Part shown: piece by piece, positions 12,001-53,545 of the stretch
Layout of the letters: each line of letters starts with the position of its first letter
Numbering within the stretch: position 1 is the stretch's first letter
Assembly (NCBI GenBank): GCA_026214975.1
Contig: JAOBSW010000332.1
Location: 1-64,000 of the forward strand
Direction: 5' to 3'
DNA: 64,000 nucleotides
DNA from: Gentiana macrophylla
Lineage: Eukaryota > Streptophyta > Magnoliopsida > Gentianales > Gentianaceae
Program-made: the position numbers and the translations under genes
The notes under the pieces: generated by a model
What the model was told of the DNA's origin: nothing
Seen by the model: only the letters and a program-made list of their open reading frames with translations
Database searches by the model: none

Positions 12001-15000
12001 CGAACCCACGGAAAATCCCGAGAAGCACACCACGTCGTTGGCATCGGAAAGGGCTTTCGAATGGTGAGCTGCGCGTGGAGCGGACACGGGGCGAAGGTTA
12101 TGGCCAAAATACTAGCGCGGGTCCACGAACCACGAATGGGGTCATGCACAAATCCACCGACATCCCGAGTACCGGCGAAAGGTAGAAAATCCCGAGAAGC
12201 ACACCACGTCGTTGGCATCGGAAAGGGCTTTCGAGAATGGTGAAGCGCACGTGGAGCGGACCACGGGAGCGAAGGTTATGGCCAAAATACTAGCGCGGGT
12301 CCACGAACCACGAATGGGGTCATGCACAAATCCACCGACATCCCGAGTACCGGCGAACCACGAGAAAATCCCGAGAAGCACACCACGTCGTTGGCATCGG
12401 AAAGGGCTTTCGAAGAATGGTGTTTGCGCGTGGAGCGGACACGGGAGCGAAGGTTATGGCCAAAATACTATACGGGTCCACGAACCACGAATGGGGTCAT
12501 GCACAAATCCACCGACATCCCGAGTACCGGCGAACCACAGAAAATCCCGAGAAGCACACCACGTCGTTGGCATCGGAAAGGGCTTTCGAGAATGGTGAGC
12601 TGCGTGGAGCGGACACGGGAGCGAAGGTTATGGCCAAAATACTACTACGCGGGTCCACGAACCACGAATGGGGTCATGCACAAATCCACCGACATCCCGG
12701 TACCGGCGAACCACAGAAAATCCCGAGAAAGCACACCACGTCGTTGGCATCGGAAAGGGCTTTCGAATGGTGAAGCTGCGCGTGGAGCGGACACGAGAGC
12801 GAAGGTTATGGCCAAAATACTATGCGGGTCCACGAACCACGAATGGGGTCATGCACAAATCCACCGACATCCCGAGGTAGAAAATCCCGAGAAGCACACC
12901 ACGTCGTTGGCATCGGAAAGGGCTTTCGAGAATGGTGAAGCGCGCGTGGAGCGGACACGGGAGCGAAGGTTATGGCCAAAATACTAACGCACGCAGGTCC
13001 ACGAACCACGAATGGGGTCATGCACAAATCCACCGACATCCCGAGTACCCCGCGAACCAGAAAATCCCGAGAAGCACACCACGTCGTTGGCATCGGAAAG
13101 GGCTTTCGAGAATGGTGAAGCTGCGCGTGGAGCGGACCACGGGGGCGAAGGTTATGGCCAAAATACTAGCGCGGGTCCACGAACCACGAATGGGGTCATG
13201 CACAAATCCACCGACATCCCGAGTGTACCGGCGAACCAGAAAATCCCGAGAAGCACACCACGTCGTTGGCATCGGAAAGGGCTTTCGAATGGTGAGCTGC
13301 GCGTGGAGCGGACCACGGGAGCGAAGGTTATGGCCAAAATACTATGCGGGTCCACGAACCACGAATGGGGTCATGCACAAATCCACCGACATCCCGAGGT
13401 ACCGGCGAACCACGAGAAAATCCCGAGAAGCACACCACGTCGTTGGCATCGGAAAGGGCTTTCGAATGGTGAAGCTGCCGTGGAGCGGACACGGGAGCGA
13501 AGGTTATGGCCAAAATACTATGCGGGTCCACGAACCACGAATGGGGTCATGCACAAATCCACCGACATCCCGAGGTACCGGCGAACCACAGAAAATCCCC
13601 CGAGAAGCACACCACGTCGTTGGCATCGGAAAGGGCTTTCGAATGGTGAAGCGCGCGTGGAGCGGACACGGGAGCGAAGGTTATGGCCAAAATACTAGCG
13701 CGGGTCCACGAACCACGAATGGGGTCATGCACAAATCCACCGACATCCCGAGATACCCCGAGGTAGAAAATCCCGAGAAGTGCACCACGTCGTTGGCATC
13801 GGAAAGGGCTTTCGAGAATGGTGAAGCTGCGTGGAGCGGACACGGGAGCGAAGGTTATGGCCAAAATACTATGCGGGTCCACGAACCACGAATGGGGTCA
13901 TGCACAAATCCACCGACATCCCGAGGTACCGAGGTAGAAAATCCCGAGAAGCACACCACGTCGTTGGCATCGGAAAGGGCTTTTCAGAATGGTGAAGCTG
14001 CATGCGTGGAGCGGACACGGGGGCGAAGGTTATGGCCAAAATACTAGCGCGGGTCCACGAACCACGAATGGGGTCATGCACAAATCCACCGACATCCCGA
14101 GGTACCGGCGTAGAAAATCCCGAGAAGCACCACGTCGTTGGCATCGGAAAGGGCTTTTCGAATGGTGAAGCGCGCGTGGAGCGGACACGGGAGCGAAGGT
14201 TATGGCCAAAATACTAGCGCGGGTCCACGAACCACGAATGGGGTCATGCACAAATCCACCGACATCCCGAGGTAGAAAACCCCGAAAATCCACACCACGT
14301 CGTTGGCATCGGAAAGGGCTTTCCAGAATGGTGCTGCGCGTGTGGAGCGGACACGGGGGCGAAGGTTATGGCCAAAATACTACTGCACGGGTCCACGAAC
14401 CACGAATGGGGTCATGCACAAATCCACCGACATCCCGAGTACCGGCGAACCACAGAAAATCCCGAGAAGCACACCACGTCGTTGGCATCGGAAGGGCTTT
14501 CGAATGGTGAGCGCGCGTGGAGCGGACCACGAGGAGCGAAGGTTATGGCCAAAATACTAGCGCGGGTCCACGAACCACGAATGGGGTCATGCACAAATCC
14601 ACCGACATCCCGAGGTACCGAAAAACCCAGAAAATCCCGAGAAGCACACCACGTCGTTGGCATCGGAAAGGGCTTTCGAGAATGGTGAAGCGCTGCGTGG
14701 AGCGGACACGGGAGCGAAGGTTATGGCCAAAATACTAGCGCGGGTCCACGAACCACGAATGGGGTCATGCACAAATCCACCGACATCCCAGGTACCCCGA
14801 ACCGTAGAAAATCCCGAGAAGCACACCACGTCGTTGGCATCGGAAAGGGCTTTCGAGAATGGTGAGCTGCGCGTGGAGCGGACCACGGGAGCGAAGGTTA
14901 TGGCCAAAATACTAGCGCAGGTCCACGAACCACGAATGGGGTCATGCACAAATCCACCGACATCCCGACAGTACCGGCGAACCACGAGAAAATCCCGAGA

Positions 15001-17943
15001 AGCACACCACGTCGTTGGCATCGGAAAGGGCTTTCGAGAATGGTGAAGCTTGCGTGGAGCGGACACGGGGCGAAGGTTATGGCCAAAATACTAGCTACGG
15101 GTCCACGAACCACGAATGGGGTCATGCACAAATCCACCGACATCCCGAGGTACCGGCGAACCACGAGAAAATCCCGAGAAGCACACCACGTCGTTGGCAT
15201 CGGAAAGGGCTTTCGAATGGTGAAGCTGCCGCGTGGAGCGGACCACGGGAGCGAAGGTTATGGCCAAAATACTAACGCGGGTCCACGAACCACGAATGGG
15301 GTCATGCACAAATCCGACATCCCCGACATCCCGGAGGTAGAAAATCCCGAGAAGCACACCACGTCGTTGGCATCGGAAAGGCTTTCGAGAATGGTGAAGC
15401 GCTGCGTGGAGCGGACCACGAGGCGAAGGTTATGGCCAAAATACTAGCGCGGGTCCACGAACCACGAATGGGGTCATGCACAAATCCACCGACATCCCGA
15501 GGTACCGAGCGACCCCAGGTAGAAAATCCCGAGAAGCACACCACGTCGTTGGCATCGGAAAGGGCTTTCGAATGGTGAAGCGCGTGGAGCGGACCACGGG
15601 AGCGAAGGTTATGGCCAAAATACTAGCAGGTCCACGAACCACGAATGGGGTCATGCACAAATCCACCGACATCCCGAGGTACCGACGAACCACGAAAATC
15701 CCGAGAAGCACACCACGTCGTTGGCATCGGAAGGGCTTTCAGAATGGTGAAGCTGCGCGCGTGGAGCGGACACGGGAGCGAAGGTTATGGCCAAAATACT
15801 AGCGCAGGTCCACGAACCACGAATGGGGTCATGCACAAATCCACCGACATCCCGAGGTACCGACGAACCACAGAAAATCCCGAGAAGCACACCACGTCGT
15901 TGGCATCGGAAAGGGCTTTCCAGAATGGTGAACTGCACGTGGAACGGACACGGGAGCGAAGGTTATGGCCAAAATACTATGCGGGTCCACGAACCACGAA
16001 TGGGGTCATGCACAAATCCACCGACATCCCGAGGTAGAAAATCCCGAGAAGTGCACCACGTCGTTGGCATCGGAAATGGCTTTCCAGAATGGTGAACTGC
16101 ACGTGGAACGGACACGGGAGCGAAGGTTATGGCCAAAATACTATGCAGGTCCACGAACCACGAATGGGGTCATGCACAAATCCACCGACATCCCGAGTAC
16201 CGGCGAACCACAGAAAATCCCGAGAAGCACACCACGTCGTTGGCATCGGAAAGGGCTTTCGGAATGGTGAGCTGCTGCGTGGAGCGGACACGGAGAGCGA
16301 AGGTTATGGCCAAAATACTATGCGGGTCCACGAACCACGAATGGGGTCATGCACAAATCCACCGACATCCCGGTACCGGCGAACCCAGAAAATCCCGAGA
16401 AGCACACCACGTCGTTGGCATCGGAAAGGGCTTTCGAGAATGGTGAACTGCACGTGGAACGGACACGGGAGGCGAAGGTTATGGCCAAAATACTAGCGCG
16501 GGTCCACGAACCACGAATGGGGTCATGCACAAATCCACCGACATCCCGAGGTAGAAAATCCCGAGAAGAAGCCCACCACGTCGTTGGCATCGGAAATGGC
16601 TTTCCAGAATGGTGAAGCTGCGACGTGGAGCGGACATGGGGGAGCGAAGGTTATGGCCAAAATACTATGCAGGTCCACGAACCACGAATGGGGTCATGCA
16701 CAAATCCACCGACATCCCAGTACCGGCGAACCACAGAAAAAAATCACGAAGCGCACCACGTCGTTGGCATCGGAAAGGGCTTTCGAATGGTGAGCTGCGT
16801 GGAGCGGACACGGGAGCCGAAGGTTATGGCCAAAATACTAGCACGGGTCCACGAACCACGAATGGGGTCATGCACAAATCCACCGACATCCCCAGGTACC
16901 GCGAACCAGAAAATCCCGAGAAGCGCACCACGTCGTTGGTATCGGAAAGGGCTTTCGAGAATGGTGAAGCTGCGAACATGGAGCGGACACGGGAGCCGAA
17001 GGTTATGGCCAAAATACTAGCGCGGGTCCACGAACCACGAATGGGGTCATGCACAAATCCACCGACATCCCACGGTAGAAAATCCCGAGAAGCACACCAC
17101 GTCGTTGGCATCGGAAAGGGCTTTTCGAATGGTGAAGCTGCATGTGGAACGGACACGGGAGCGAAGGTTATGGCCAAAATACTAGCGGGTCCACGAACCA
17201 CGAATGGGGTCATGCACAAATCCACCGACATCCCGAGTACCGGCGAACCCTGAAAATCCCGAGAAGCGCACCACGTTGTTGGCATCGGAAAGGGCTTTCG
17301 AATGGTGAAGCGCGCGTGGAGCGGACCACAGGAGCGAAGGTTATGGCCATAATACTATGCGGGTCCACGAACCACGAATGGGGTCATGCACAAATCCACC
17401 GACATCCCCGAGGTACCGGCGAACCACAGAAAATCCCGAGAAGCACACCACGTCGTTGGCATCGGAAAGGTCTTTCGAATGGTGAAGCGCACATGAAGCG
17501 GACCACGGGGCGAAGGTTATGGCCAAAATACTATGCGGGTCCACGAACCACGAATGGAGTCATGCACAAATCCACCGACATCCCCTAGGTAGAAAATCCC
17601 GAGAAGCACACCACGTTGTTGGCATCGGAAATGGCTTTCGAATGGTGAAGCGCTTGCGTGGAGCGGATCGGGAGGCGAAGGTTATGGCCAAAATACTATG
17701 CGGGTCCACGAACCACGAATGGGGTCATGCACAAATCCACCGACATCCCGGGTACCGGCGAGCCACGAAAATCCCGAGAAGCGCACCACGTCGTTGGCAT
17801 CGGAAAGGGCTTTCGAATGGTGAAGCGCACGTGGAGCGGACACGAGGCCGAAGGTTATGGCAAAAATACTAGCACGGGTCCACGAACCACGAATGGGGTC
17901 ATGCACAAATCCACCGGCGTCCCAGTACCGGCGAACCACAAAA
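1..17943. repeat. Satellite block A (about 100 monomers, 168-183 bp)
   Basis: Head-to-tail array whose landmark ACGTCGTTGG recurs at 181, 351, 519, 695, 873, 1051, 1228, 1401, 1580 and so on to the block end. Three stretches are almost invariant: the one around GGTTATGGCCAAAATACTA, the one around CACGAATGGGGTCATGCAC, and the one around GTCGTTGGCATCGGAAAG. Variation is mostly small indels at four spots: after GAATGGTGA, in GGAC(C)ACGGG(G), at CTAG/CTATGCGGGTCC, and at the GAGGTACCGGCGAACC joint. Compared with blocks B-F it reads GGAGCGG for GGAACGG and CCACGAACCACG for CCACCGAACCACCG. Monomers closer to the B-F type appear at about 15.9-17.9 kb. The array runs off the left edge of the window and ends where the SIRE LTR begins. 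It is open in several frames but codes for nothing recognisable. Confidence 0.97.
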
Positions 17944-30596: not shown

Positions 30597-32550
30597 GTGA
30601 ACTGCACGTGGAACTTACACGGGAGCCGAAGGTTATGGCCAAAATACTAGCACGGGTCCACCGAACCACCGAATGGGGTCATGCATAAATCCACCGACAT
30701 CCCCGATGTAGAAAATCCACGAGAAGCACACCACGTCTTTGGCATCGGAAAGGGCTTTCCAGAATGGTGAACTGCACCTGGAACAGACACAGGAGCCGAA
30801 GGTTATGGCCAAAATACTAGCATGGGTCCACCGAACCACCAAATAGGGTCTTGCACAAATCCACCGACATCCCCGAGGTACCGACGAACCACAGAAAATC
30901 CCCAAGAAGCACACCACGTCGTTGGCATCGGAAAGGGCTTTCCAGAATGGTGAACTAAACGTGGAACAGACACGGGAGCTGAATGTTATGGCCAAAATAC
31001 TAGCACGGGTCCACCGAACCACCGAATGGGGTCATGCACAAATCCACCGACATCCCCGAGGTAGAAAATCCATGAGAAGCACACCACGTCGTTGGTCTCG
31101 GAAAGCGCTTTGCAGAATGGTGAACTGCACGTGGAACGGACACGGGAGCCGAAGGTTATGGCCAAAATACTAGTATGGGTCCACCGAACCATTGAATGGG
31201 GTCATGCACAAATCCACCGACATCCCCGAGGTACCGACGAATCATAGAAAATCCCCGAGAAGCACACCACGTCGTTGGCATCGGATAGGGCTTTCCAGAA
31301 TGGTGAACTGCATGTGGAACGGAGACGGGAGCCGAAGGTTATGGCCAAAATACTAGCACGGGTCCACCAAACCACCGAATGTGGTCATGCACAAATCCAC
31401 CGACATCCCCGAGGTAGAAAATCCGTGAGAAGCGCACCATGTCGGTGGCATCGGAAATGGCTTTCCAGAATGGTGAACTGCACGTGGAACGGACACGTGA
31501 GCCGAAGGTTATGGCCAAAATAGTAGCGCGGGTACACCGAACCACTGAATGGGGTCATGCACAAATCCACCGACATCCCTGAGGTACCGATGAACCACAG
31601 AAAATCCCCGAGAAGCACACCACATTGTTGGCATCAGAAAGGGCTTTCCAGAATGTTGAATTGCATGTGGAACGGACACGAGAGCCGAAGGTTATGGCCA
31701 AAATACTAGCACGGTTCCATCGAACCACCGAATGGTGTCATGCACAAATCCACCGACATCCCGAGGTACAGACGAACCACAGGAAATCCCCGAGAAGCAA
31801 ACCACGTCGTTGGCATCGGAAAGGGCTTTCCAGAATGGTGAACTGAACGTGGAACAGACACGGGAGCCGAAGGTTATGGCCAAAATACTAGCACGGGTCC
31901 ACCGAACCTCCGAATGGGGTCATGCACAAATCCACCGACATCTCTGTGGTAGAAAATCCCCGAGAAGCTCACTACATCGTTGGCATCGGAAAGGGCTTTC
32001 CAGAATGGTGAACTACATGTGGAACGGACACGGGAGCCGAAGGTTTTGGCCAAAATACTAGCACGGGTCCACCGAACAATCGAATGCGGTCATGCACAAA
32101 TCCACCGACATCCCCGAGGTACCTACAAACCACAGAAAATCCCCGAGAAGCACACCACGTCGTTGGCATCGGAATGGGCTTTCCAGAATGGTGAACTGCA
32201 CGTGAAACGGACACGGGAACCGAAGGTTATGGCCAAAATACTAGCACGGGTCCACCGTACCACCGAATGGGGTCATGCACAAATCCACCGACATCCCCGA
32301 GGTAGAATATCCCCAAGAAGTGCACCACGCCGTTTCCATCGGAAAGGGCTTTCCAGAATGGTGAACTGTACGTCGAACGGACACGGGAGAAGAATGTTAT
32401 GGCTAAAATACTAGCACGGGTCCACCGAACCACCGAATGGGGTCATGCACAAATCCACCGACATCCCCGATGTAGAAAATCCCCGAGAAGTGCACCACGT
32501 CGTTGGCATCGGAAAGGACTTTCCATAATGGTGAACTGCACGTGGAACGG
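30597..32550. repeat. Satellite block B, 353-bp dimeric unit
   Basis: The landmark ACGTCGTTGG (with variants) lies at 30916, 31086, 31269, 31439, 31622, 31804, 31974, 32157, 32327 and 32497. Spacing alternates 170 and 183 bp with two exceptions (182 at 31622-31804; 170 twice at the end). The 170-bp form has GAGGTAGAAAATCC and the 183-bp form GAGGTACCGACGAACCACAG. The block starts in mid-monomer at the SIRE truncation point and stops at GTGGAACGG where E3 is inserted. Confidence 0.95.
32546..32550. other. Target site duplication AACGG of E3, left copy
   Basis: Last five bases of satellite before TGTTAAGGGC; repeated at 37785-37789 directly after CTCCAACA, where the satellite monomer continues with ACACGGGAG. 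Confidence 0.95.
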
Positions 32551-33138
32551 TGTTAAGGGCTAAATTATAGTGATTTTTACATATATTTTCTATATCAGTT
32601 TCCCCTACATTCGTATGATTTCCATAGAAATCGAGCTTTATATTGAAATATTGAGTAAATGATGTTTTTAATAGTTAAATTGCAAAACGTAACGAATTAT
32701 GTGCTTAAATTATGATTTTATATTATTTTGGAAATATGTTACACTTTGGTATGTTTTGATCCTTGTGTAGATACTCATTGATGATGGAAAAGATGATCCT
32801 AAAGAGCTAATTTGAGATGAGAGAGGATCAATCAAAGATATGGAAGAATAAAGGAGATAAGGAAAGAAATCAATGAAGATAAAGATGGAAATATCAAGAT
32901 TTTCGGCGGATGGTGGCGCCCAAGATTAACGAGCAGCGTCGGATCGTAGGCGGCGTTTGAAAATCTGAACCGGCGTCGTAATCGTAATTCACATTCGAGA
33001 GAGTTCAGACGTTGGTCGAATCAACTGGCGTCGATCTCCGTCAAGCATCACGGGCGGGCGTCGGTTGAGTGAAAGGCGTCCACCGCCGTTTTGCTTTGAA
33101 ACCGACTTAGGTTACTATAGCGACCGCCTCTGTTTTCT

Positions 33139-33146
33139 ATTTAAAG
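33139..33146 (+). promoter_or_regulatory. TATA-like box of the E3 5' LTR
   Basis: TATTTAAA. The same box is at 36834-36841 in the 3' LTR. It lies about 96 nt upstream of the TCACCCGAG hairpin. Confidence 0.5.
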
Positions 33147-33234
33147 CACAAAGCAGCCCCAAACCCTAATTCATTTGAAATTTCTTCACATCAAAAGAGA
33201 GCTAGTGACCGCATCTTGAGAGTTTGAAGGCCGG

Positions 33235-33259
33235 TCACCCGAGCCTTGTGCTCGGGTGA
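33235..33259 (+). other. LTR hairpin (R region) of E3, 5' copy
   Basis: TCACCCGAG and CTCGGGTGA pair perfectly around the 7-nt loop CCTTGTG. Identical copies stand at 36929-36953 (E3 3' LTR), 52683-52707 and 57239-57263 (E5 LTRs). Its place about 100 nt after the TATA box puts it in the presumed start of the transcript. Confidence 0.75.
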
Positions 33260-33394
33260 ACCGAGGTTAGATTAGGGGTAGTTTTGCATGTTTTTGTTTC
33301 CATCTTTTCTTGTTCCTACATTGATTAGGGGGCATCTAGGGTTGATTTATCTGACTTCAAGTTTTTAACGATCAAATTTTTGGAAAAAAGGGAT

Positions 33395-33600
33395 AGTTTT
33401 AGCACTCGTTACTATTTTGGCCATAACTTTCGGCTCGAGTGTCGGATTGGCGCGTAGGACCCCAATTCGGAAAGCTCGTTCCGACGCCGACGACAAGGTG
33501 GAAAGCCAAAGGCCGTCCGACACCGTTTTCGAGGTCAAAATCCACTGGTTTACCTTCAATTTTGGGCTCAGAAGATTTCAACACGTTTTTCCCCCCCTTT
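33395..33600 (-). repeat. Satellite-like segment in the E3 leader
   Basis: Read on the minus strand, the segment contains GTCGTCGGCGTCGGAA, GAGCTTTCC, CGACACTCGAGCCGAAAG and TTATGGCCAAAATA in this order and spacing. The satellite has GTCGTTGGCATCGGAA, GGGCTTTCC, GGACACGGGAGCCGAAGG and TTATGGCCAAAATA. The match runs about 90 bp with one side more diverged. The same leader segment occurs in E4 at about 49110-49320. The satellite plus strand corresponds to the antisense strand of the element in both. Confidence 0.85.
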
Positions 33601-34221
33601 CTAGTGTTTTCATGTTTTAAATTTTTCGTAGTTTAGGTTTAGGATTCTGTTTCCGTATCTTTTTAGGTATTTTTATCAATAAAAGTAGCGTGAATTAAAT
33701 TGAGAGTTTTTATTTTTGCCGTGTTTCGATGACCGGTAGGTTAAGAATGTGCAAAAAGTTTTTTTACTCAATTTATGAAACGTGAAGTATATGTTGGTGT
33801 GTTTTCTAATCTAATCTTTTGTGCTAAAAGTTATCGGTATTTGTTGAGTTGTTAATCTGAATTGCTATGAGTTTAAGATGTTAGTCTAGGGTTTGCGGTT
33901 GCGTTTACTAAGTTGCGAGTTCTTTGTGTCGAAGAAGGCGGACAGGCGTTCTGGTGAACGCCCGTTTGAAAATCGTAACGACGTTTGAAATTCGTAGCGC
34001 GACGTTCAAAGGGTTGACGAGCGCCCAACCCTACGCCTGTGTTCCAAAGTTTTTATTTATTCGATTTTTAATGCTTTATTTGACTTGGATGTTTTTAATC
34101 TGAGCTTCTGTGGCTGATTAATTTTACATAGATGTCCTGAACTTATATGTTTGTACCTTTCCATCTATGAATCCATGTTAGATAATTGATCTTATTCCTT
34201 ATACATGATTCATCTATTCAA
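33601..34221 (+). other. E3 leader / internal non-coding region with GC-rich palindromes
   Basis: From about 33680 it matches E5 from about 53620 (ATAAAAGTAGCG, GAGAGTTTTTATTTTT, CCGTGTTTCGATGACC). 33935-34035 holds several CG-rich GAACG/CGTTC-type half sites. No reading frame of note. Confidence 0.65.
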
Positions 34222-36251: not shown

Positions 36252-37784
36252 TGTTAAGGGCTAAATTATAGTGATTTTTACATATATTTTCTATATCAAT
36301 TTCCCCTACATTCGTATGATTTCCATAGAAATCGAGCTTTATATTGAAATATTGAGTAAATGATGTTTTTAATAGTTAAATTGCAAAACGTAACGAATTA
36401 TGTGCTTAAATTATGATTTTATATTATTTTGGAAATATGTTACACTTTGGTATGTTTTGATCCTTGTGTAGATACTCATTGATGATGGAAAAGATGATCC
36501 TAAAGAGCTAATTTCGAGATGAGAGAGGATCAATCAAAGACATGGAAGAATAAAGGAGATAAGGAAAGAAATCAATGAAGATAAAGATGGAAATATCAAG
36601 ATTTCGACAGTGGACTGGCGTCCAAGATTAACGAGAAGCGTCGATCGTAATCGGCGTTTGAAAATCTGAACCATCGTCCAGAATCGTAATTCACATTCAG
36701 AGAGTTCAGACGTTGGTGAATCGGCGTCGATCTCCGTCAAGCATCACGGGCGGGCGTCGGTTGAGTGAGCGGGCGCCCACCGCCGTTTTCTTTGAAACCG
36801 ACTAAGGTTCTTGTAGCGGCCGCCTCTGTTTTCTATTTAAAGCACAGCAGCCCCAAACCCTAATTCATTCGTAAATTTCTTCACATCAAAAGAGAGGCGA
36901 AACCGCATCTTGAGAGTTTGAAGGCCGGTCACCCGAGCCTTGTGCTCGGGTGAACCGAGGTTAGATTAGGAGTAGTTTAGATGCTTTTCGTTTCCGTTCT
37001 TGGATCCTTCAATGTATGAGACTATGTGAGTTCTTCTTGATTTATTTACTTCCAGTTTTTATTCATGATCTTGGTTCTTTTTGTATTTTTCTATGTGGTT
37101 TGTATGGCTACGTGAATAAATTGAGGAATTAGTTCACGATAGATGTTTATAATACGGAAGTTGCATAAACCTTAGATCATCATAGAAAGATAGGGTTTTT
37201 AGCCGTTGATTATGTGACAAATTAATTGGTTAGATTCCTAGGTTGGTAGATTCGATTATACGAGAGTAACTTGAATCTACACCCGTCGTTTTGTTTGGTA
37301 AATCAGTCTCAACACTCGAAAGATGAGAGATAGATAATTGAATTAAGCTCACTTAAAGTAGGATTTCATAGCTTGAGAGATAAGTTCACTAAGAGATTAG
37401 GGATTTGTGTCTCGTGAAAGGGTGAAACCACAAACTGAATTAAAATCATGAGATTAACTAGGATTGAGATCACATAGGTTTGTATATTGGTTGTTTGATC
37501 CCATGTCTTTAGTTTAGATTGTTTTTTATGTTTCTTAGGTTAGATTTATCTTGATTGCTCTTTCGTTTATTTTATTTGTTCTTTCGTTTATTCATTTTTC
37601 CTAAGTAACAATTGAAAGGAATTAGTGAAATTAGATTCAACATCCCAATTCCCTGTGGATCGACCCCTTACTCACTTCGCTCTACTATCAATTACCCGGT
37701 ATTCGGCCGGTTAGGAGTTAGTTTTGCATGGTAGTTAGGGTTTATAAATTTTCTTTTGTTTAATGATGCAAAATCCCTCCAACA
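36252..37784 (+). repeat. E3 3' LTR (1533 bp)
   Basis: TGTTAAGGGCTAAATT to CCCTCCAACA. TATTTAAA at 36834-36841 and the 9-bp hairpin at 36929-36953. The last 850 bp resemble the E5 LTR closely, and the first part resembles the E4 LTR in a stretch before the TATA box. No coding content. Confidence 0.92.
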
Positions 37785-39462
37785 AACGGACACGGGAGCA
37801 GAAGGTCATGGCCAAAATACTAGGATGGGTCCACCGAACCACCGAATGGGGTCATGCACAAATCCACCGACATCCCCGAGGTAGAAAATCCCCAAGAAGC
37901 ACACCACGTCGTTGGCATCGGAAAGGGCTTTCCAGAATGGTGAACTGCACGTGGAACGGACACTGGAGCCGAAGGTTATGGCCAAAATACTAGCACGGGT
38001 CCACCGAAACACCGAATGGGGTCATGCCCAAATCCACCGACATCCCTGAGGTACCGACGAACCACAGAAAATCCCCGAGAAGCACACCACGTCGTTGGCA
38101 TCGGAAAGAGCTTTCCAGAATAGGGAACTAAACGTGGAACAGACACGGGAACTGAAGGTTATGGCCAAAATACTAGCATGGGTCCACCGAACCACCAAAT
38201 GGGGTCATGCTCAAATCCACCGACATCCCCGAGGTAGAAAATCCTCGAGAAGCACACCACATTGTTGGCATCGGAGAGGGCTTTCCAGAATGGTGAACTG
38301 CACATGGAACAGACACGGGAGCCGAAGGTTATGGCCAAAATACTAGCACGTGTCCACCGAACCACCGAATGGGGTCATGCACAAATCCACCGACATCCCC
38401 GAGGTACCGACGAACCATAGAAAATCCCCGAGAAGCACACCACGTCGTTGGCATTGGAAAGGTCTTTCCAGAATGGTGAACTGCACGCGGAATGGACACG
38501 GGAGCTGAAGGTTATGGCCAAAATACTAGCACGGGTCCACCAAACCACCGAATGGGGTCATGCACAAATCCACCGACATCCCCGAGGTAGAAAATCCCCG
38601 AGAAGCACAACACTTCGTTGGCATCGAAAATGGCTTTCCAGAATGGTTAACTGCACGTGGAACTTACACGGGAGCCGAAGGTTATGGCCAAAATACTAGC
38701 ACGGGTCCACCGAACCACCGAATGGGGTTATGCACAAATCCACCGACATCCCCGATGTACCGACGAACCACAGAAAATCCCCGAGAAGTGCACCACGTCA
38801 TTGGCATCGGAAAGGGCTTTCGCATTGTGAGGCGCACGTGGAACGGACACGAGAGCGAAGGTTATGGCCAAAATACTAGCACGGGTCCACCGAACCACCG
38901 AATGGGGTCATGCACAAATCCACCGACATCCCCGAGGTACCGACGATCCACATAAAATCCCCGAGAAGCACACCACGTCGTTGGCATCGGAAAGGGATTT
39001 CCAGAATGGGGAATCGCGCGTGGAACGGACACGGAGCCGCGAAGGTTATGGCCAAAATACTAGCACGGGTCCACGAACCACCGAATGGGGTCATGCACAA
39101 ATCCACCGACATCCCCATGGTATAAAATCCCCGAGAAGCGCACCACGTCGTTGGCATCGGTAATGGCTTTCCAGAATGGTGAAGCGCACGTGGATCGCAT
39201 ACGAGAGCCAAAGGTTATGGCAAAAATACTAGCACGGGTCCACCGAACCACCGAATAGGGTCATGCACAAATCTATTGACATCCCCGAGGTACCGATGAA
39301 CCACATAAAATCCCAGAGAAGCACACCACGTCGTTGGCATCAGAAAGGGCTTTCTAGAATGGTGAACTGCACATGAAACGGACACGGAGCCGAAGGTTAT
39401 GGCCAAAATACTAGATGCGGGTCCACCGAACCACCGAATGGAGTCATGCACAAATCCACCGA
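37785..39462. repeat. Satellite block C
   Basis: About nine and a half monomers of the 170/183-bp dimeric type. It begins with the right copy of AACGG in phase with the end of block B. The part 38748-39462 is nearly the same as block D (49329-50046), sharing rare variants such as ACGATCCACATAAAATCC, CCATGGTATAAAATCC, AATCTATTGACATC and ATGGAGTCATGC. It ends at CACCGA where the E4 LTR begins. Confidence 0.95.
39458..39462. other. Target site duplication ACCGA, left of E4
   Basis: ACCGA before the LTR start TGTTCGG. The same five bases stand on both sides of the solo LTR (50042-50046 and 51632-51636). Confidence 0.9.
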
Positions 39463-40369
39463 TGTTCGGTAAAAGCGTGTTTTAAATTTATAAACCGAAA
39501 CACCCCAAGTATAAGGATCGTAGTATAGGGTGTTTACGGTCGCCCTAAGGAGTGGAATGTTTATCGGATTCAAATATAAATCTATATCCATTATGTCACA
39601 ATTATCTATCTAAACTAAAGCTGAAACTAACTAAAACCTAAACCTAAGAATTAAAACTAAAACAGGAAATAAAAACAAGCAGGAAATAAGAAAACAGAAA
39701 GACGGACGAGCGTTCACTAAAGTGAACGAGCGTCTGAAAACTAAATCTAATGGACGAGCGCGTCTGCTATTGCGGACGAGCGTCTGATTATGAACTGAAG
39801 CAGAAAAGTGCAGGAAAACAGCAGGAAATTAGGGTTTATAAAACTAGAACTTAAACTAAACTTAATCTAAACGATTCGATTAATAAACAATAAAGGGAAA
39901 ACACAGCGAGGCGATCAGATTCCACCCATCAACCAACAACTCAACTAGATGATGATTTAGAACATAGTTTTTAGTAGTGATTTTTCACGGATTCAATTAG
40001 ATATCTCTAACCAAAATCTAGGGTTTCGTTTATCTTTTTCAAGTAAACTAAACATGCAATCAAAACGAAATCACGAGATTGTTTCCAAACTCTTACTCAA
40101 CTAATCATGCATAATCTCTTAAAACACAATTAGATGCATTACTTTGAACGAAAGAAAACTCAAATAAACAGACTTTCATAAATTTATTCAAGCATAAATT
40201 AAACATAGATCGTTTCATCAAATCTTAATTCAATAAAACTTAAGCAATACAAAACAGATCCAAAGTAATGAAAAACTATGAAATAAACTCACTAAACTTA
40301 AGCATCGAATTCTCTAGTTGGTTTTGTTGTTGATAGGCTTCCTCCGTCGACTCACTGCAAGGTTTCTAG

Positions 40370-40398
40370 CCAACAATCATGTTGAATATGATTGTTGG
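40370..40398 (-). other. LTR hairpin (R region) of E4
   Basis: CCAACAATCAT and ATGATTGTTGG form a perfect 11-bp stem with a 7-nt loop. It starts about 114 nt downstream of the TATA box. The same structure is at 50958-50986 in the solo LTR. Its sequence is unrelated to the E3/E5 hairpin, but position and loop size agree. Confidence 0.75.
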
Positions 40399-40511
40399 TT
40401 GGGAGATTTGCATCTCTGTGAAATTAGGGTTCTTTGGCCGCAGCTTTTGGTGAATTTGCGATCTCAATGTTGCGTAAAAAAAATATGTTCTTAGGGTTGG
40501 GGCTGCTGCTG

Positions 40512-40519
40512 TATTTATA
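40512..40519 (-). promoter_or_regulatory. TATA box of the E4 LTR
   Basis: Minus-strand TATAAATA; the solo LTR has the same box at 51100-51107. Confidence 0.6.
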
Positions 40520-41047
40520 GAGCTCTAAGTCGGTTAGCCTTAGGTCGGCGGCGGACGCTCGTTCGCTTATATGGACGCCCGTTCAAGATGCCTTAGACGC
40601 TATCAAGACGCTCGTCCAGATTCCGTCCAAACTCTCTGTTCAACTTTTCTTCTCTAGACGCTCGTCCGAATTACAAGACGCCCGTCCATATTGGACCATT
40701 GCATGGACGCTAAATGCGGATTGATGCGTGAACGGATTCCTTGATATTTCCATCTTTATCTTGATTGATTTCTTTCCTTATCTCTTTCATTTCCCATATC
40801 TTTGATTGATCTTCTCGAAATTAAGTCTCCTAAAAGATAAATGAACATTGCAAAATGTAATGAAATCCAAATAATCATAATTAAATCAATTAAACACTTA
40901 AAATAACCAATTTTGCAAATAACCATATTAAAATGACATTTACCTAATAATTACACTTAAACCCTTAATTCTCATGTAAATTACGCAAATGTGGGGAAAA
41001 TAATAATGAAATAAACCCTTAATAATCATATAAATATGGCCTTAACA

Positions 41048-44450: not shown

Positions 44451-45755
44451 TCAACTCGAAAGGCTTGGTCCATCGGTGCAACTAAAATAGGGGGCGATAA
44501 GCTTGTCTTTCGGACAATTGAAAGCTTCTTTGCACTTCAGATCGAACAAGAAATCGACATCTTCTTTCAAGAGATTTGATAAAGGCTTGGCAATCGTAGA
44601 AAAGTCTCGAATGAAACGCCGGTAGAAGCCAACGTGTCCTAGAAAACCTCGTACCTCCTTCACTGTCTTAGGGTACGTCATCCTTTCAATGGCTTCGACC
44701 TTAGCCTTATCAACTTGAATACCAGCTTTGGACACCTTGTGTCCCAAAACTATTCCTTCATCAACTAGAAAATGGCATTTCTCCCAGTTAAGCACCAGAT
44801 TTTTCTCAACACAACGTTGGAGTACCATATCTAGATTCTTTAAAATTTCATCAAAGCTATCGCCATAGACTGAGAAGTCATCCATGAAGACCTCCATGCA
44901 TTGCTCCACAAGTCCATAAAAAATGGCCAACATGCACCGTTGAAAAGTCGCGGGTGCATTGCATAGACCGAATGGCATTCTACGAAAGGCAAAAGTACCA
45001 GATGGACATGTAAACGTGGTCTTCTCTTGGTCATTGGGGTCGATGGCTATCTGGAAGTAACCAGAGTATCCATCGAGAAAACAATAATACTTGTGACCAC
45101 TCAGTCTTTCAATAAGCTGGTCAATGAAGGGTAGGGGAAAGTGGTCCTTGGCAGTGACCTCGTTAAGTCGACGATAGTCGATACAGACTCTGTAGCCAGT
45201 CACGAGACGTAGGGCAACTTCCTCCCCTTTTTCATTCTTTTCAACCGTGATACCGCCCTTCTTTGGCACAACTTGAGTAGGGCTGACCCACTCGCTATCG
45301 GTGATTGCGTAGATGATTCCCATGTCAAGCCACTTTATAACCTCCTTCTTGACAACCTCTTGCATATGCGGATTCAGCCTTCGCTGAGGTTGTCTTACCT
45401 TTTTAGCTCCTTCCTCCGTTCGGATTTTATGCATGCATATGTCTGGGCTGATCCCTCGGATATCACCCACTTGCCAACCGAACGCGAGGATGTTTTTCTT
45501 AAGCACTTCTATCAGCTGTGCTTCTTGCTCTTGGTCGAGTTTCGAAGAAATGATCAAAGGCAATTTATCTCCATCCTTAAGAAAGATATACTTAAGGTGT
45601 TTTGGGAGCGGTTTGAGCTCTAAATCGTGAGGTGGTTGCTCAATACTAGACTTTAACGGGCCACCTTTCTCCTTATGAGCTTGAAGTGGTTGACAAAGAG
45701 AACACCTCATCTTCCCGAGGCTCAACCCGTAAAGGTACTGGATCAAATCATCCAT
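44451..45755 (-). CDS. E4 reverse transcriptase, intact domain
   Basis: RNA-dependent DNA polymerase domain of the pol polyprotein (434 residues in this frame). All blocks are present in order: AFGWQVGDIRGISP (about 91-104), RRLNPHMQEVVKKE, SEWVSPTQVVPKKGG (154-168), GYRVCIDYRRLNEVT (187-201), LDGYSGYFQI with the first catalytic Asp228, FRRMPFGLCNAPATFQRCM (257-275), FMDD at 290-293, LNWEKCHFLV, GIVLGHKVS and FLGHVGFYRRFI. This is the best preserved coding domain in the window. The first 25 or so residues are probably not native, because in pol the domain follows the protease without its own start. Confidence 0.95.
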   Translation of the reverse strand: MDDLIQYLYGLSLGKMRCSLCQPLQAHKEKGGPLKSSIEQPPHDLELKPLPKHLKYIFLKDGDKLPLIISSKLDQEQEAQLIEVLKKNILAFGWQVGDIRGISPDICMHKIRTEEGAKKVRQPQRRLNPHMQEVVKKEVIKWLDMGIIYAITDSEWVSPTQVVPKKGGITVEKNEKGEEVALRLVTGYRVCIDYRRLNEVTAKDHFPLPFIDQLIERLSGHKYYCFLDGYSGYFQIAIDPNDQEKTTFTCPSGTFAFRRMPFGLCNAPATFQRCMLAIFYGLVEQCMEVFMDDFSVYGDSFDEILKNLDMVLQRCVEKNLVLNWEKCHFLVDEGIVLGHKVSKAGIQVDKAKVEAIERMTYPKTVKEVRGFLGHVGFYRRFIRDFSTIAKPLSNLLKEDVDFLFDLKCKEAFNCPKDKLIAPYFSCTDGPSLSS

Positions 45756-46445
45756 CGGAATCCTCCGGTCAACACTTGCTTCCTTTTCTTGTGATCGATC
45801 ATTCTTCTTAACTCTTCATCTTTAAGCTCTTCTGCCAGCTCTTCCCAGTCATCTACTTCCCAATGAGTAGCTTCTCTCCAAAACTCTACCTCGTCCCAAC
45901 TACCCATCGAGCTTCTTCTTCACCAGGGATGAAGTCTTCGACTCATTCTTTGAAATCATCGTTTGTTCTTTGGGCATCTCCATGCTTCTAACTCAATACC
46001 AGCCCAGTGCAGAGCGAGTGAAGATGGATCGTCAATGCCTACGGCTTGAAATGAATTAGAAGGTGGTCCGCAATCACCGGATCCTCAATGTCCATGACTT
46101 CAAAAACACCTATCTCTGTAAGCTCCATTGCATCTTCATAATAGGCATCTCCTCCGTCCTCATATATGGCTTCGACAAAGCGATATTTCATCAATTACGG
46201 CTCTTTCAGGATGTGTCCCTCGTGTGAAGGTGACAGATGTGTCACCGACTCTAAGAGTGTCTGTCCTTTGCGTAAGTCGATGAGAGCGTTAGAAGTGTCT
46301 AAAAGGTTCGGCCTAGAATTAGAGGCATCTCCTTATCGGTGGATAGTCTAGAATAACCCAAATCGGTAGGGAAGACTAAATGTTCAATTTGAAGAAGAAC
46401 ATTAGCTACACAACGGCCGCTGATCGACTAGATTTGTCTACCATC
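45756..46445 (-). pseudogene. E4 protease-RT linker, degenerate
   Basis: By position this holds the C-terminal half of the protease and the linker. Pieces such as LGYSRLSTDKEMPLILG-like sequence are readable near 46300-46360 on the minus strand, but no long frame is open. Nothing else is recognised. Confidence 0.45.
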
Positions 46446-48604: not shown

Positions 48605-49328
48605 AAACCAGAAGAAAGGAAAAGGAAGAAATCAACCATTTGGGGTTGATTAGAATAGGTTTAGAAAAGGTTAGATGGTTTAGAGGAAGAAAAGAAAAGA
48701 GAAGGAAAGAGAAGAAAGAAAAGAAGTGATGATTGAACAGATCGAATCAAGCGCCCGGTGTTAATGGAGCGTTCGTTTGAATCGAACGCTCGTTCAGTTG
48801 AATGAACGTTCGTTCAGAGGACAGAATTGAGGTGGACGGGCGTTCAAGTTGTTGAACGCTCGTTCAGATACGAAAACCTAAAAACTAAGGTTACCAGAAA
48901 TTAAAAACGAGATAAAAAAAATAAAAGCAGAAAAGACTTATGGAAATAAAATCAAACAAATCTATAATTACGGAAACAGATCTAAGCTATAAAAAAAAGT
49001 AAGGAAAATAATTGAAAGAAAATCAAATAAAATAAAACAAGAATAAATGTAATCCTAAAATTAAACTAAATCGGAAAAGAAACCTACCTAATAAAAGTTT
49101 AAAAACAAGAAAAACACTAAGACGGTAAAAACGTGTTGAAACCTTCTAGGGCCAAAATGGAGGGAAAGCAAGTGGATTTTGACCTCAAAACGCACTGAAC
49201 GGCCTACAGATATGCATACGAATTGGGGTCCTGCGTTCCAAACGGACACTCGAGCCGAAAGTTACGGCCAAAATACTACTGCGTGCTAAAAATGATCCGC
49301 ACGGACACGTAAAATCGCCCTATGAAGA
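48605..49328 (-). other. E4 leader with palindromes and satellite-like segment
   Basis: Non-coding. 48771-48870 carries GAACGCTCGTTC (48784-48795 and 48854-48865) and GAACGTTCGTTC (48804-48815). 49110-49320 is the leader segment shared with E3; it contains GGACACTCGAGCCGAAAG, TTACGGCCAAAATACTA and, 51 nt later, ATCCCCG at 49329. In the intact element this last motif should continue as the complement of the tRNA-Asp primer-binding site. Confidence 0.75.
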
Positions 49329-50046
49329 ATCCCCGATGTATCGACGAACCACAGAAAATCCCCGAGAAGTGCACCACGTCATTGGCATCGGAAAGGGCTT
49401 TCCAGAATTGTGAACTGCACGTGGAACGGACACGGGAGCCGAAGGTTATGGCCAAAATACTAGCACGGGTCCACCGAACCACCGAATGGGGTCATGCACA
49501 AATCCACCGACATCCCCGAGGTACCGACGATCCACATAAAATCCCCGAGAAGCACACCACGTCGTTGGCATCGGAAAGGGATTTCCAGAATGGTGAACTG
49601 CACGTGGAACGGACACGGGAGCCGAAGGTTATGGCCAAAATACTAGCACGGGTCCACCGAACCACTGAATGGGGTCATGCACAAATCCACCGACATCCCC
49701 ATGGTATAAAATCCCCGAGAAGCGCACCACGTCGTTGGCATCGGTAATGGCTTTCCAGAATGGTGAACTGCACGTGGATCGGACACAGGAGCCAAAGGTT
49801 ATGGCAAAAATACTAGCACGGGTCCACCGAACCACCGAATAGGGTCATGCACAAATCTATTGACATCCCCGAGGTACCGATGAACCACATAAAATCCCAG
49901 AGAAGCACACCACGTCGTTGGCATCGGAAAGGGCTTTCTAGAATGGTGAACTGCACATGAAACGGACACGGGAGCCGAAGGTTATGGCCAAAATACTAGC
50001 ACGGGTCCACCGAACCACCGAATGGAGTCATGCACAAATCCACCGA
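49329..50046. repeat. Satellite block D, copy of the left flank of E4
   Basis: Four monomers that repeat 38748-39462 variant for variant. It joins the E4 leader through ATCCCCG, which belongs to both sequences. It ends with ACCGA before the solo LTR. Confidence 0.93.
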
Positions 50047-51631
50047 TGTTCGGTAAAAACGTGTTTTAAATTTATAAACCGAAACACCCCAAGTATAAGG
50101 ATCGTAGTATAGGGTGTTTACGGGTCGTCCTAAGGGAGTGGAATGTTTATCGGATTCAAATATAAATCTATATCAATTATGTCACAATTATCTATCTAAA
50201 CTAAAGCTGAAACTAACTAAAACCTAAACCTAAGAATTAAAACTAAAACAGGAAATAAAAACAAGCAGGAAATAAGAAAGCAGAAAAGACGGGACGGCGC
50301 TCACTAAAGTGAACGAGCGTCAAAACTAAATCTAATGGACGAGCGGCGTGCGCTATTGCGGACGAGCGCCCGATTATGAATTGAAGCGTAAAAGTGCAGA
50401 AAACAAGCAGAAATTAGGGTTTATAAAACTAGAACTTAAACTAAACTTAATCTAAACGATTCGATTAATAAACAATAAAGGGAAAACACAGCGAGGCGAT
50501 CAGATTCCACCCATCAACCAACAACTCAACTAGATGATGATTTAGAACATAGTTTTTAGTAGTGATTTTTCACGGATTCAATTAGATATCTCTAACCAAA
50601 ATCTAGGGTTTCGTTTATCTTTTTCAAGTAAACTAAACATGCAATCAAAACGAAATCACGAGATTGTTTCCAAACTCTTACTCAACTAATCATGCATAAT
50701 CTCTTAAAACACAATTAGATGCATTACTTTGAACGAAAGAAAACTCAAATAAACAGACTTTCATAAATTTATTCAAGCATAAATTAAACATAGATCGTTT
50801 CATCAAATCTTAATTCAATAAAACTTAAGCAATACAAAACAGATCCAAAGTAATGAAAAACTATGAAATAAACTCACTAAACTTAAGCATCGAATTCTCT
50901 AGTTGGTTTTGTTGTTGATAGGCTTCCTCCGTCGACTCACTTCGCATAGGTTTCTAGCCAACAATCATGTTGAATATGATTGTTGGTTGGGAGATTTGCA
51001 TCTCTGTGAAATTAGGGGTTCTCGGCGCAGACTTTTGGTGAATTTGCGATCTCAATGTTGCGTAAAAAAATATGTTCTTAGGGTTGGGGCTGCTCTTTGT
51101 ATTTATAGAGCTCTAAGTCGGTTAGCCTTAGGTCGGGCGGCGGACGCTCGTTCGCTTATATGGACGCCCGTTCAAGATGCCTTAGACGCTATCAAGACGC
51201 TTCTCGTCGCATTCCGTCCAAACTCTCTGTTCAACTTTTCTTCTCTGACGCCGTCCGAATTACAAGACGCCCGTCCATATTGATATTTGCATGGACGCCG
51301 TCTGGATTGATGCGTAACGGATTCCTTGATATTTCCATCTTTATCTTGATTGATTTCTTTCCTTATCTCTTTCATTTCCCATATCTTTGATTGATCATCT
51401 CAAATTAAGTCTCCTAAAAGATAAATGAACATTGCAAAATGTAATGAAATCCAAATAATCATAATTAAATCAATTAAACACTTAAAATAACCAATTTTGC
51501 AAATAACCATATTAAAATGACATTTACCTAATAATTACACTTAAACCCTTAATTCTCATGTAAATTACGCAAATGTGGGGAAAATAATAATGAAATAAAC
51601 CCTTAATAATCATATAAATATGGCCTTAACA
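50047..51631 (-). repeat. Solo LTR of the E4 family
   Basis: 1585 bp, TGTTCGG to CTTAACA, with ACCGA at 50042-50046 and again at 51632-51636. Both sides are satellite, and the two flanks together restore one uninterrupted monomer (CCACCGA-CATCCCC). It contains TATA at 51100-51107 and the hairpin at 50958-50986. The open frame at 50903-51283 lies inside the LTR and is not a gene. Confidence 0.9.
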
Positions 51632-51725: not shown

Positions 51726-53541
51726 TGTTAAGGGTGATTTTATACGTTTTATAAGGATATATTTTATATCAATATTCCCCATATATGGATGTTTTTCGTA
51801 GAATTCGAGCTTACAATCGATTAATTGAGCAAATGACGTTTTGAATAGTTAAAATGCAAAATCGAGTAAATATCGTGGTTTTATTATCTATTTTGTATGG
51901 TTTTACGTTTTGCTCGGTTTTGTCATCTTTTAGGTGCACAAATGTGGAATGGAAGAGGTCTAAATGATGTTTGATTGAAGATTAAAATGGAAAGAAAGAG
52001 ATACAAGAGGATGAAGATGAAATAAAGCTTGGGAAAATCCCAAAACGACTCGTAATCTGACGGGCTAACCAAAAGGCGTTCAAGAAGAGTCCTTAATGAA
52101 AGTTGTAGAGTTTTCCGAGAGATTTTTATGACATTCGGATCATAATTTTGGAGGTCTACAACTCAAGATATGGATTTTAGAAGTTTTATTCAATAAATAT
52201 TCCATGCAAGAATATTCGATCTGAGTTGCAAAGCAATCACTTTGAACTAGCGTTCCAAGATGCAGACTAGCGTTCAAGGCTGAACTGGCGTCCAAGATGA
52301 TGGAACTGGCGTCCAGGAGGCAAAAACATGTACAGAGTCTTCAGCATGTGCTTGGACGAACGTCCACCTTCCGTCTGGTTTAGCTTGGACGAGCGTCCAT
52401 TGTGGTAAACGAGCGTCCGCCACCGCCATGCACAGCCGCCTCACTTTTTAATTACAGCCGCATGCAAATTCTTTTTGGAAAAAGAATTATTCAGCCGACA
52501 TACATAATGCAAAATCCTAATTAAATTAGGATTATTTTCAGCCGCAAAAAGCAAAGGAACAGCCGCCTTAGTTGACCTATAAATACATGCATGTATTAAA
52601 AACCTAAATACAATAATTCATACATTATTCCAGCCGCAAAAAGCAAGGCCGAGCAATGCGCTTTGAGGAGTCCCAAGGCCGGTCACCCGAGCCTTGTGCT
52701 CGGGTGATCCGAGGTTAGATTAGGAGTAGTTTTTCGTTTCGTTTCCGTTTGTTGATCAATCCTTGTACCAAAACTATGTGAGTTTATTTTTAATTTATTC
52801 AATCCTTATTTATTTTTCATGATCTTTAATTTATTTTGTATCGTTCTATGATTATGATGCTATTATGTGAACTAGATCGAGAGATATGTTTACTAATTGA
52901 TAGTTTACAACATACGAAAGTTGCGTAAGCTAGATCACAATAGAAAGATAGGATCTTTAATCATTAATTATGTGACAAATTAATTGGTTAATTATCTAGG
53001 TTGTTAGATTCTAAAATACGAAAGTTAACATGAATCTACACCGAGTTTTGTTTGGTAAATCGATCTCAACATTCGGAAGATGAGAGATTGATAAATTGGA
53101 CTCATTAAGGAATTAGGAATCCATAGCTTGAGATTAAATTCACTAAGGAATTAGGGATTTGTATCTCGTGTAAAGGTGAAACCACAATTTGAATTAAAAT
53201 CATGAGATGAACTAGGATTGAAATCACTTGGTTTGTGCACTGTTTGATCCCATGTATCTTTAGTTTAGTTTAGGTTGTGTTATTTTATTTCGTAGGTTTG
53301 ATTTATTTTAATTGCTCTTTCGTTTATTTTATTTGTTCTTTCATTTATTCGTTTTTCCTAAGTAACAATTGAAAGGAATTAGTGAAATTAGATTCAACAT
53401 CCCAATTCCCTGTGGATCGACCCCTTATTCACTTCGCTCTACTATCAATTACCCGGTATTCGGCCGGTTAGGAGTTAGTTTTGCATGGTAGTTAGGGTTT
53501 ATAAATTTTCTTTTGTTTAATGATGCAAAATCCCTCCAACA
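51726..53541 (+). repeat. E5 5' LTR (1816 bp)
   Basis: TGTTAAGGGTGATTTT to CCCTCCAACA. TATAAATA at 52578-52585, R-region hairpin at 52683-52707, and palindromic CG motifs at 52250-52432 including GGACGAGCGTCC at 52387-52398. The U3 differs from E3; the U5 is shared with it. Confidence 0.93.
52578..52585 (+). promoter_or_regulatory. TATA box of the E5 5' LTR
   Basis: TATAAATA, repeated at 57134-57141 in the 3' LTR, about 105 nt upstream of the 9-bp hairpin in both. Confidence 0.65.
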
Positions 53542-53545
53542 AAAG

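What the first reader, a model, noticed from the sequence alone, without database searches (positions are those of the whole stretch)
33395..33600. The satellite monomer is homologous to a retrotransposon leader segment
In E3 (minus strand of 33395-33600) and in E4 (49110-49320) the region just downstream of the primer-binding site contains the satellite blocks GTCGTYGGCRTCGGAA, GCTTTCC, GGACAC-nnn-GAGCCGAA and TTATGGCCAAAATA in the same order and nearly the same spacing. In E4 the distance from the end of CCAAAATACTA to TCCCCG (the expected PBS complement) is 51 nt; in the satellite the distance to its own TCCCCGAGG is 50 nt, so the satellite may even keep a PBS remnant. The simplest reading is that the satellite arose by amplification of an Athila-type leader. 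The reverse, capture of a satellite unit by the elements, is possible. That related elements now sit inside the array makes this a self-reinforcing repeat domain.
Basis: partly seen in the sequence, partly recalled or inferred. Interest (0 to 1): 0.88.

Follow-up and report, generated by a model that had tools for sequence, protein, structure and literature searches.

The report
Satellite half-built from retrotransposon leader
In what is likely a plant genome, the repeat unit of a satellite array shares an 88-base block with the leader of retrotransposons scattered across the genome, and the array likely arose when one such leader piece, fused to other DNA, was amplified in tandem; other satellites are already known to come from retrotransposons.

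Summary
The homology is real. An 88-bp block of the 170/183-bp satellite monomer aligns without gaps to retrotransposon leaders: E3 z=23 and E4 z=18 against 1000 dinucleotide shuffles each, 0 as high, opposite strands at chance; single dispersed leaders reach 81%. Two details fail. E4 lacks the first two blocks, and its "PBS complement" TCCCCG is a junction to satellite DNA; a tRNA-Asp PBS lies 47-633 nt from the motif in 42 of 44 sampled leaders on contig C1. The other ~95 bp of the monomer match nothing in hand; a PBS remnant there is undecided.

Of 88 copies of the shared 14-mer examined on C1, 81 are leaders, 7 unrelated, 0 satellite. The satellite-word places listed lie on one large contig (C3, 4.1 Mb) and on small contigs. 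Satellites form one clade joining a minority leader class; E3 and E4 sit elsewhere and are unlikely to be the source. Amplification of a leader piece is favoured over capture but not proven, for lack of an outgroup. It is a new member of a known kind (CRM1TR/CRM4TR in maize, cenLTR in dogrose).

The parts
1..17940 (+). Satellite array, unit about 177 bp (102 monomers used)
   Evidence: TRF; monomer splitting
30597..32550 (+). Satellite array, 170/183-bp units (353-bp dimers); ends at the E3 target site AACGG (32546-32550)
32551..33301 (+). E3 5' LTR, truncated: 3' half, PBS and about 340 bp of leader are missing
   Evidence: LTR pair with 36252-36995; comparison with dispersed copies L011-L013
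33410..33497 (-). E3: the 88-bp leader block homologous to the satellite
   Evidence: z=23, 0/1000 shuffles; ungapped alignment
33302..33667 (+). E3 leader segment; found in dispersed elements
   Evidence: 40 scored places (one is the window itself) at 87-100% identity, of 2407 first-look candidates
36252..37784 (+). E3 3' LTR, followed by TSD AACGG
37785..39462 (+). Satellite array between E3 and E4; ends at the E4 target site ACCGA
39463..41047 (-). E4 3' LTR
44451..45815 (-). E4 reverse transcriptase reading frame
   Evidence: Pfam RVT_1 E=9.9e-30; RT relatives, those with names nearly all from plants
49219..49278 (+). E4: partial leader block, about 60 of 88 bp, first part missing
   Evidence: z=17.8, 0/1000 shuffles; alignment
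49329..49332 (+). ATCC shared by leader and satellite at the E4/satellite junction; E4's 5' LTR and PBS are missing here
   Evidence: comparison with L039, L071, L091, L118
49329..50046 (+). Satellite; together with the next LTR copy a duplicate of about 38748-41047
   Evidence: K2P 0.0332 (satellite) and 0.0318 (LTR)
50047..51631 (-). Solo LTR of the E4 family with TSD ACCGA on both sides
51726..58097 (+). E5: LTRs 51726-53541 and 56300-58097, tRNA-Asp-type PBS at 53546, TSD AACGG; leader block deleted at about 53619
58098..64000 (+). Satellite array, 170/183-bp units; continues to C87:65681

Best explanation
An 88-bp stretch of the satellite monomer is homologous to the leader of dispersed LTR retrotransposons, and the satellite likely arose when a piece of such a leader became joined to other DNA, was duplicated in tandem and was then amplified at one chromosomal region. 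Shown: the homology; its place beside a PBS, with gag downstream in several dispersed elements; its presence in many elements with no satellite beside it; a single satellite clade; a restricted satellite location among the places listed; and near-equal divergence of array and embedded LTR copies, as expected if they were duplicated together. Inferred: the direction, the first joining by illegitimate (microhomology) recombination, and growth by unequal crossing-over. E3, E4 and E5 are best read as later insertions into an existing array.
For: Homology 0/1000 shuffles, opposite strand null; single leaders 80.7% over 88 bp to the satellite consensus, E=2e-18. Of 88 exact 14-mer copies examined on C1, 81 are leaders, 7 unrelated, 0 satellite; 42 of the 44 with longer flanks match the tRNA-Asp PBS at 13-18 of 18 positions, 47-633 nt away, where four unrelated loci reach 10; gag (PF03732) lies downstream in 5 of 9 loci tested. 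The leader block is part of a module of about 200 bp conserved at 85-93% between LTR-end families whose flanks often do not align; the satellite holds 88 bp of it. Listed satellite-word places: one large contig (C3 4.1 Mb) plus small contigs. Satellites are one clade (100/100); the split joining them to leaders L053/L098 has 89/83. Leader CG corresponds to satellite TG/CA at 4 sites, the reverse at 0. Array and LTR copies differ alike, K 0.033 and 0.032.
Against: The tree has no outgroup, so the root could lie between satellite and leaders. Mean pairwise identity within leaders and within satellites is the same (0.90 each), so depth does not order them. Four other transitions read leader A, satellite G, which offsets the CpG signal if all transitions are counted, and one of the four CpG sites depends on how a one-base shift is aligned. 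About 95 bp of the monomer have no known source. L053, of the leader class nearest the satellite, has no recognised PBS in what was fetched; L098 was not fetched far enough. Loci were chosen by a shared 14-mer or by similarity to E3. Four of nine downstream frames tested gave no gag; one of them hit an integrase zinc-binding domain.
Confidence: 0.77

Rival explanations
1. Capture: the satellite is older, and an ancestral element picked up part of a monomer in its leader and spread it.
For: Root unknown; equal average divergence within the two groups; homology is limited to 88 bp, as a captured fragment would be.
Against: The conserved leader module extends about 100 bp beyond the satellite match in element sense in nearly all copies compared, and L053 shares about 180 bp with other leaders. 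Capture would have to predate the split of three LTR-end families, while the satellite-word places listed are on one large contig and small contigs. Leaders with missing block parts (L007, L042, L070, E4) have differing breakpoints, unlike an empty site.
Confidence: 0.14
2. Whole-leader origin: the monomer derives from a short-class leader including the PBS, and the other 95 bp have diverged beyond recognition. (A variant of the best explanation, not exclusive with it.)
For: ACCGAC(A)TCCCCG matches the PBS side of L004 and L006 at a similar distance from the motif: 5 and 6 of 300 anchored shuffles. Leader sequence outside the module diverges fast between families.
Against: Over nine short-class leaders 23 of 300 shuffles do as well, and the other seven leaders score near their null; unanchored tests give 134-1212 of 2000; the tail against all loci then in hand and the window elements gives 118 of 200.
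Confidence: 0.25
3. A third source: satellite and leaders each took the block from another repeat.
For: The block is shared by element families whose other sequence often does not align, so it may be exchanged between elements.
Against: Among 88 C1 loci with the 14-mer the only homologous context seen is the leader.
Confidence: 0.05

Closest known systems
CRM1TR and CRM4TR, maize tandem repeats from centromeric retrotransposons (PMC3648361; passages seen, the abstract's results among them)
   Same: Tandem repeats from the LTR/UTR part of Ty3/gypsy elements, at one or two loci, with other retrotransposons inserted; monomers end inside a UTR region conserved between element subfamilies, as here the match ends inside a conserved leader module.
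   Different: There the monomer is entirely element-derived, and CRM4TR is about 1370 nt and 95-98% identical to its parent; here 88 of 170-183 bp match, at up to 81% to the satellite consensus, and the parent is Athila-like.
cenLTR1-4 of dogrose, tandem repeats from centrophilic ATHILA LTRs (PMC12222009; passages seen)
   Same: Tandem repeats probably derived from Athila elements, in a plant.
   Different: LTR-derived with monomers of 1425-2596 bp; here a short leader piece in a 170/183-bp monomer.
Lathyrus sativus satellites from Ogre 3' UTR tandem repeats (PMC7004042; passages seen)
   Same: Dispersed LTR retrotransposons as source, expansion into long arrays, elements later inserted into expanded arrays; the authors weigh the same two directions.
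   Different: Source was already a short tandem array downstream of gag-pol; here the leader block is single-copy in the elements seen.
Athila/Calypso/Diaspora-type elements (PMC1142308, PMC6317226; passages seen)
   Same: Diaspora and Calypso: tRNA-Asp PBS about 5 bp inside the LTR; Diaspora has 873 bp between LTR and gag.
   Different: The leader module seen here was not looked for in those elements; the RT clade of the present elements was not tested.

Membership tests
Retrotransposon-derived satellite DNA | Monomer homologous to a part of a dispersed element, above chance | tested here: met
   0/1000 shuffles for E3 and E4; 80.7% over 88 bp
Retrotransposon-derived satellite DNA | Long tandem arrays | tested here: met
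   17.9 kb and 5.9 kb arrays in the window; exact words over at least 17.8 kb on C3
Retrotransposon-derived satellite DNA | Element part exists dispersed without satellite | tested here: met
   81 of 88 C1 loci are leaders, 0 satellite
CRM1TR/CRM4TR type | Whole monomer derived from the element | tested here: not met
   the other ~95 bp match no leader or element in hand (118 of 200 shuffles as good); a match to unsampled elements is not excluded
CRM1TR/CRM4TR type | Monomer includes LTR sequence | tested here: inconclusive
   no LTR match in the fetched flanks, which hold only part of the LTR diversity
Athila clade of Ty3/gypsy | tRNA-Asp PBS next to the LTR end | tested here: met
   E5 53546; 42 of 44 C1 leaders and 25 of 29 E3-like loci. 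Shared with some other non-chromovirus elements
Athila clade of Ty3/gypsy | gag and pol (RT, integrase) domains | tested here: met
   E4 RVT_1 and rve below its cut-off; gag downstream of the leader in 5 of 9 loci
Athila clade of Ty3/gypsy | RT/RH/INT phylogeny within the Athila clade; no archaeal RNase H | not tested
   no lineage-labelled reference set was at hand

The most novel reading that the evidence does not exclude
A conserved leader module of about 200 bp, shared by Athila-type families whose flanking sequence does not align, is a recurrent seed of satellite DNA, and the resulting array feeds back on its parents: satellite transcripts or small RNAs, which share an 18-nt exact run (27 nt with one mismatch, for example with L071) with leaders, would guide silencing of the dispersed elements from one locus.
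Probability: 0.06. Interest if true: 0.72.

Novelty: new member of a known kind. Interest (0 to 1): 0.4.

Why it matters
It is a worked case of satellite birth from a retrotransposon leader, with many parent-type leaders (81 examined on one contig) still dispersed in the same genome, so direction and source class can be tested by adding related species. It also points to a conserved leader module shared between LTR families whose other non-coding sequence often does not align, which deserves study in its own right.

Tried and rejected
PBS remnant in the satellite: tested three ways, undecided to negative. PBS complement at E4 49330: rejected, junction to satellite. E3 or E4 as the source: not supported by the tree (E3 sits with L026, E4 with L038). 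Site-specific insertion: E3 and E5 have the same TSD AACGG at the same monomer position although they are different elements (LTR pairs K 0.062 and 0.022, between elements 0.158 or more), but a further copy at C87:82868 sits elsewhere in the monomer, so this is noted only. RNA structure of the leader module: RNAalifold gives a closing stem and hairpins on 29 leaders chosen by hand. There 15 cells change on both sides (0 of 500 shuffles reach that; covariation score 1 of 500), but 14 of the 15 come from one pair, and two such pairs are reached by 204 of 500 shuffles. With 50 sequences the covariation term is +0.11; single-sequence z-scores are -0.6 to -3.3. Not established. For one search, 50 of the 81 C1 leaders were used; 31 were dropped by hand for indels or deletions in the block. 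In one search, 78 of the 81 were used (L007, L096, L101 dropped). For one search, 9 of the 11 downstream frames of 120 codons or more found in 37 loci were tested. Array edge on C3: borders another tandem repeat, no leader seen. Leader word in viral and prokaryote collections: 0 hits, as expected. Papers holding any of five satellite/leader words: 0. Searches for Athila with satellite origin listed no title on a satellite from an Athila leader; most of those papers were not read.

The planned whole-genome searches with the E4 leader, with the L053 class and with GGCCAAAATACTAGCAC did not complete, so copy numbers per leader class are unknown.

Full report
WHAT IS THERE. The window is the first 64 kb of a 121-kb contig (C87) of a 1.79-Gb genome with large contigs of 95-196 Mb. 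Likely a plant: among the 120 relatives of the E4 reverse transcriptase listed (of 7986), those with organism names are nearly all plant proteins. Satellite arrays fill 1-17940, 30597-32550, 37785-39462, 49329-50046, 51632-51725 and 58098-64000. The units are mostly 170 and 183 bp (a 353-bp dimer in TRF), or about 177 bp in the left array. Between them lie LTR elements: E1 (minus; gag, RT and integrase by Pfam), E3 (plus), E4 (minus; RT) with a solo LTR, and E5 (plus).

THE HOMOLOGY. Against two joined monomers, the E3 segment (minus strand) scores 68 and the E4 segment (plus strand) 56; 1000 dinucleotide shuffles of each have mean 16.4-16.6 and maximum 30-31, none as high; the opposite strands score 17 and 16, at chance. 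The match is an ungapped block of 88 bp from CACGTCGT to CCAAAATACTA. E3 has the whole block (33410-33497).

WHERE THE BLOCK LIVES. The word TTATGGCCAAAATA occurs 3646 times in the genome, satellite copies included (147 of them in the window). The 100 places listed all lie on contig C1, spread over 2.3-111.7 Mb. I examined 88 of them: 81 are leader-like (score 47-95 against the satellite), 7 are unrelated (28-30), none is satellite. Of the 44 leaders fetched with longer flanks, 42 have a PBS matching the 18-base tRNA-Asp PBS at 13-18 positions, 47-633 nt away; the two without are L053 and L076; the four unrelated loci of that set reach 10. In a second set of 29 loci chosen for similarity to E3, 25 have it; L022, L026, L030 and L032 do not. 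The 40 scored matches to the E3 leader (one is the window) lie on 12 of the large contigs and on small ones. Nine downstream reading frames gave gag (PF03732) in 5 (L001, L003, L004, L006, L008), an integrase zinc-binding domain in L035, a weak unrelated hit in L007 and nothing in L002 and L034. So the block lies in the leader, between PBS and gag where both were seen.

A LONGER CONSERVED MODULE. Three LTR-end types (A, B, C) share the module. Compared with copies of other LTR-end types, about 200 bp starting at the motif align at 85-93% identity with coverage 0.97-1.00. For L006 and L002 nearly nothing beyond about 100 bp upstream and 300 bp downstream aligns (coverage at most 0.21); for L012, and upstream for L033, parts of the flanks align in a fraction of the copies. 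The satellite holds the first 88 bp of this module (element sense) and none of the rest that could be detected. Selection of loci by the 14-mer makes coverage at the motif itself trivial, but not at 100-200 bp from it. An RNA fold can be drawn but has no convincing covariation.

THE OTHER HALF. The remaining ~95 bp (82 bp in the short unit) match no leader, LTR piece or window element then in hand better than shuffles (118 of 200 as good). The stretch ACCGAC(A)TCCCCG resembles the PBS side of two short-class leaders at a similar distance, 5 and 6 of 300 shuffles each, but 23 of 300 when nine leaders are counted. I leave the PBS remnant open. E4's own TCCCCG is not a PBS complement: relatives continue from GAATCC towards the PBS, while E4 changes to satellite at ATCC.

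WHERE THE SATELLITE LIVES. A satellite word occurs 668 times; the 100 places listed run along C3:4.1076-4.1254 Mb, and none is listed on C1 or C2. A second word, the 170-bp junction, occurs 257 times; the 100 places listed are on C3 (4.108-4.133 Mb, 13 places), C87, C183 and C373. That list appears to run in contig number, which would mean no exact copy on C1, C2 or C4-C86. A 29-base word of the non-leader half occurs 2228 times with up to 3 mismatches, control 0; its first 100 places, in another order, are on C183, C373 and C436. The remaining places are not listed, so this is a restricted location, not a proof of one locus. The C3 array borders a different tandem repeat.

DIRECTION. In trees of the block the satellites are one clade (100/100). 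With 78 C1 leaders and 18 monomers the split joining satellites to L053 and L098 has support 89/83; the order of the next branches is not resolved. E3 groups with L026 (81/84) and E4 with L038 (99/48), not with the satellites. The tree is unrooted. For leader-first: the block is part of a longer module in leaders of all three LTR-end families; leaders are on at least 12 large contigs, listed satellite words on one; at four of 19 differing columns leader CG is satellite TG/CA and never the reverse. Against giving that last count much weight: one of the four depends on alignment of a one-base shift, and four other transitions go leader A to satellite G (44 of 72 leaders and 28 of 46 monomers that fitted without gaps). 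Mean identity within leaders and within satellites is equal (0.90). On balance I put leader-first at 0.77.

HISTORY OF THE ARRAY. LTR divergences (K2P) are E1 0.012, E5 0.022, E3 0.062. With recalled rates of 7e-9 and 1.3e-8 per site and year, E3 entered some 2.4-4.4 million years ago, which would be a minimum age of the array. The E4 LTR and the solo LTR differ by 0.032 and the satellite stretches beside them by 0.033, as expected if array and LTR were duplicated together: the array seems to have kept growing by duplication of blocks with elements inside. E3 and E5 sit at the same base of the monomer, but a further copy does not. E5 lost about 660 bp of leader, with the block. Nothing here shows that the homology attracts elements or drives array growth, so 'self-reinforcing' is not supported.

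MECHANISM. Most likely a leader piece was joined to other DNA by illegitimate recombination (the ATCC junction of E4 fits such a join here), a first tandem copy formed, and unequal exchange did the rest. Only the E4 junction and the matching divergences of the duplicated block are seen; the founding step is inferred. For maize CRM1TR and CRM4TR illegitimate recombination was likewise proposed, and their monomers likewise end inside a UTR region conserved between subfamilies (PMC3648361, passages).

Noticed in passing
L001-L038 (3-kb loci), element sense, 0-200 bp from the motif: A leader module of about 200 bp is conserved at 85-93% between LTR-end families whose flanks often do not align; its function is unknown.
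   Followed up: partly
1-17940 and C3:4107645 onward (L080): Monomers in these arrays lack single bases in short runs (CC read as C and the like) compared with the 170/183 arrays, giving many odd lengths; possibly sequencing or polishing error.
   Followed up: no
38748-41047 and 49329-51631: Satellite plus LTR look duplicated as one block (K 0.033 and 0.032); the right copy is a solo LTR with TSD ACCGA, the left joins E4, whose 5' LTR is gone.
   Followed up: yes
32546-32550, 37785-37789, 51721-51725, 58098-58102: E3 and E5, different elements, have the same TSD AACGG at the same monomer position; a further related LTR at C87:82868 sits at another position.
   Followed up: partly
L053 (L079) and L098: A minority leader class (2 of 81 on C1), nearest to the satellite; no TGGCGCC on either strand in the fetched 9.8 kb of L079.
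   Followed up: partly
L080 (C3 about 4.1075 Mb): The satellite array ends abruptly at another tandem repeat.
   Followed up: no
L006:2663-2770, minus strand: Below-threshold Rfam match to plant snoR71 (35.7 bits, gathering 40), overlapping on the other strand a frame that hits gag.
   Followed up: no
17960-30596: E1 and its surroundings carry no GGCCAAAATA on either strand, unlike E3 and E4.
   Followed up: no
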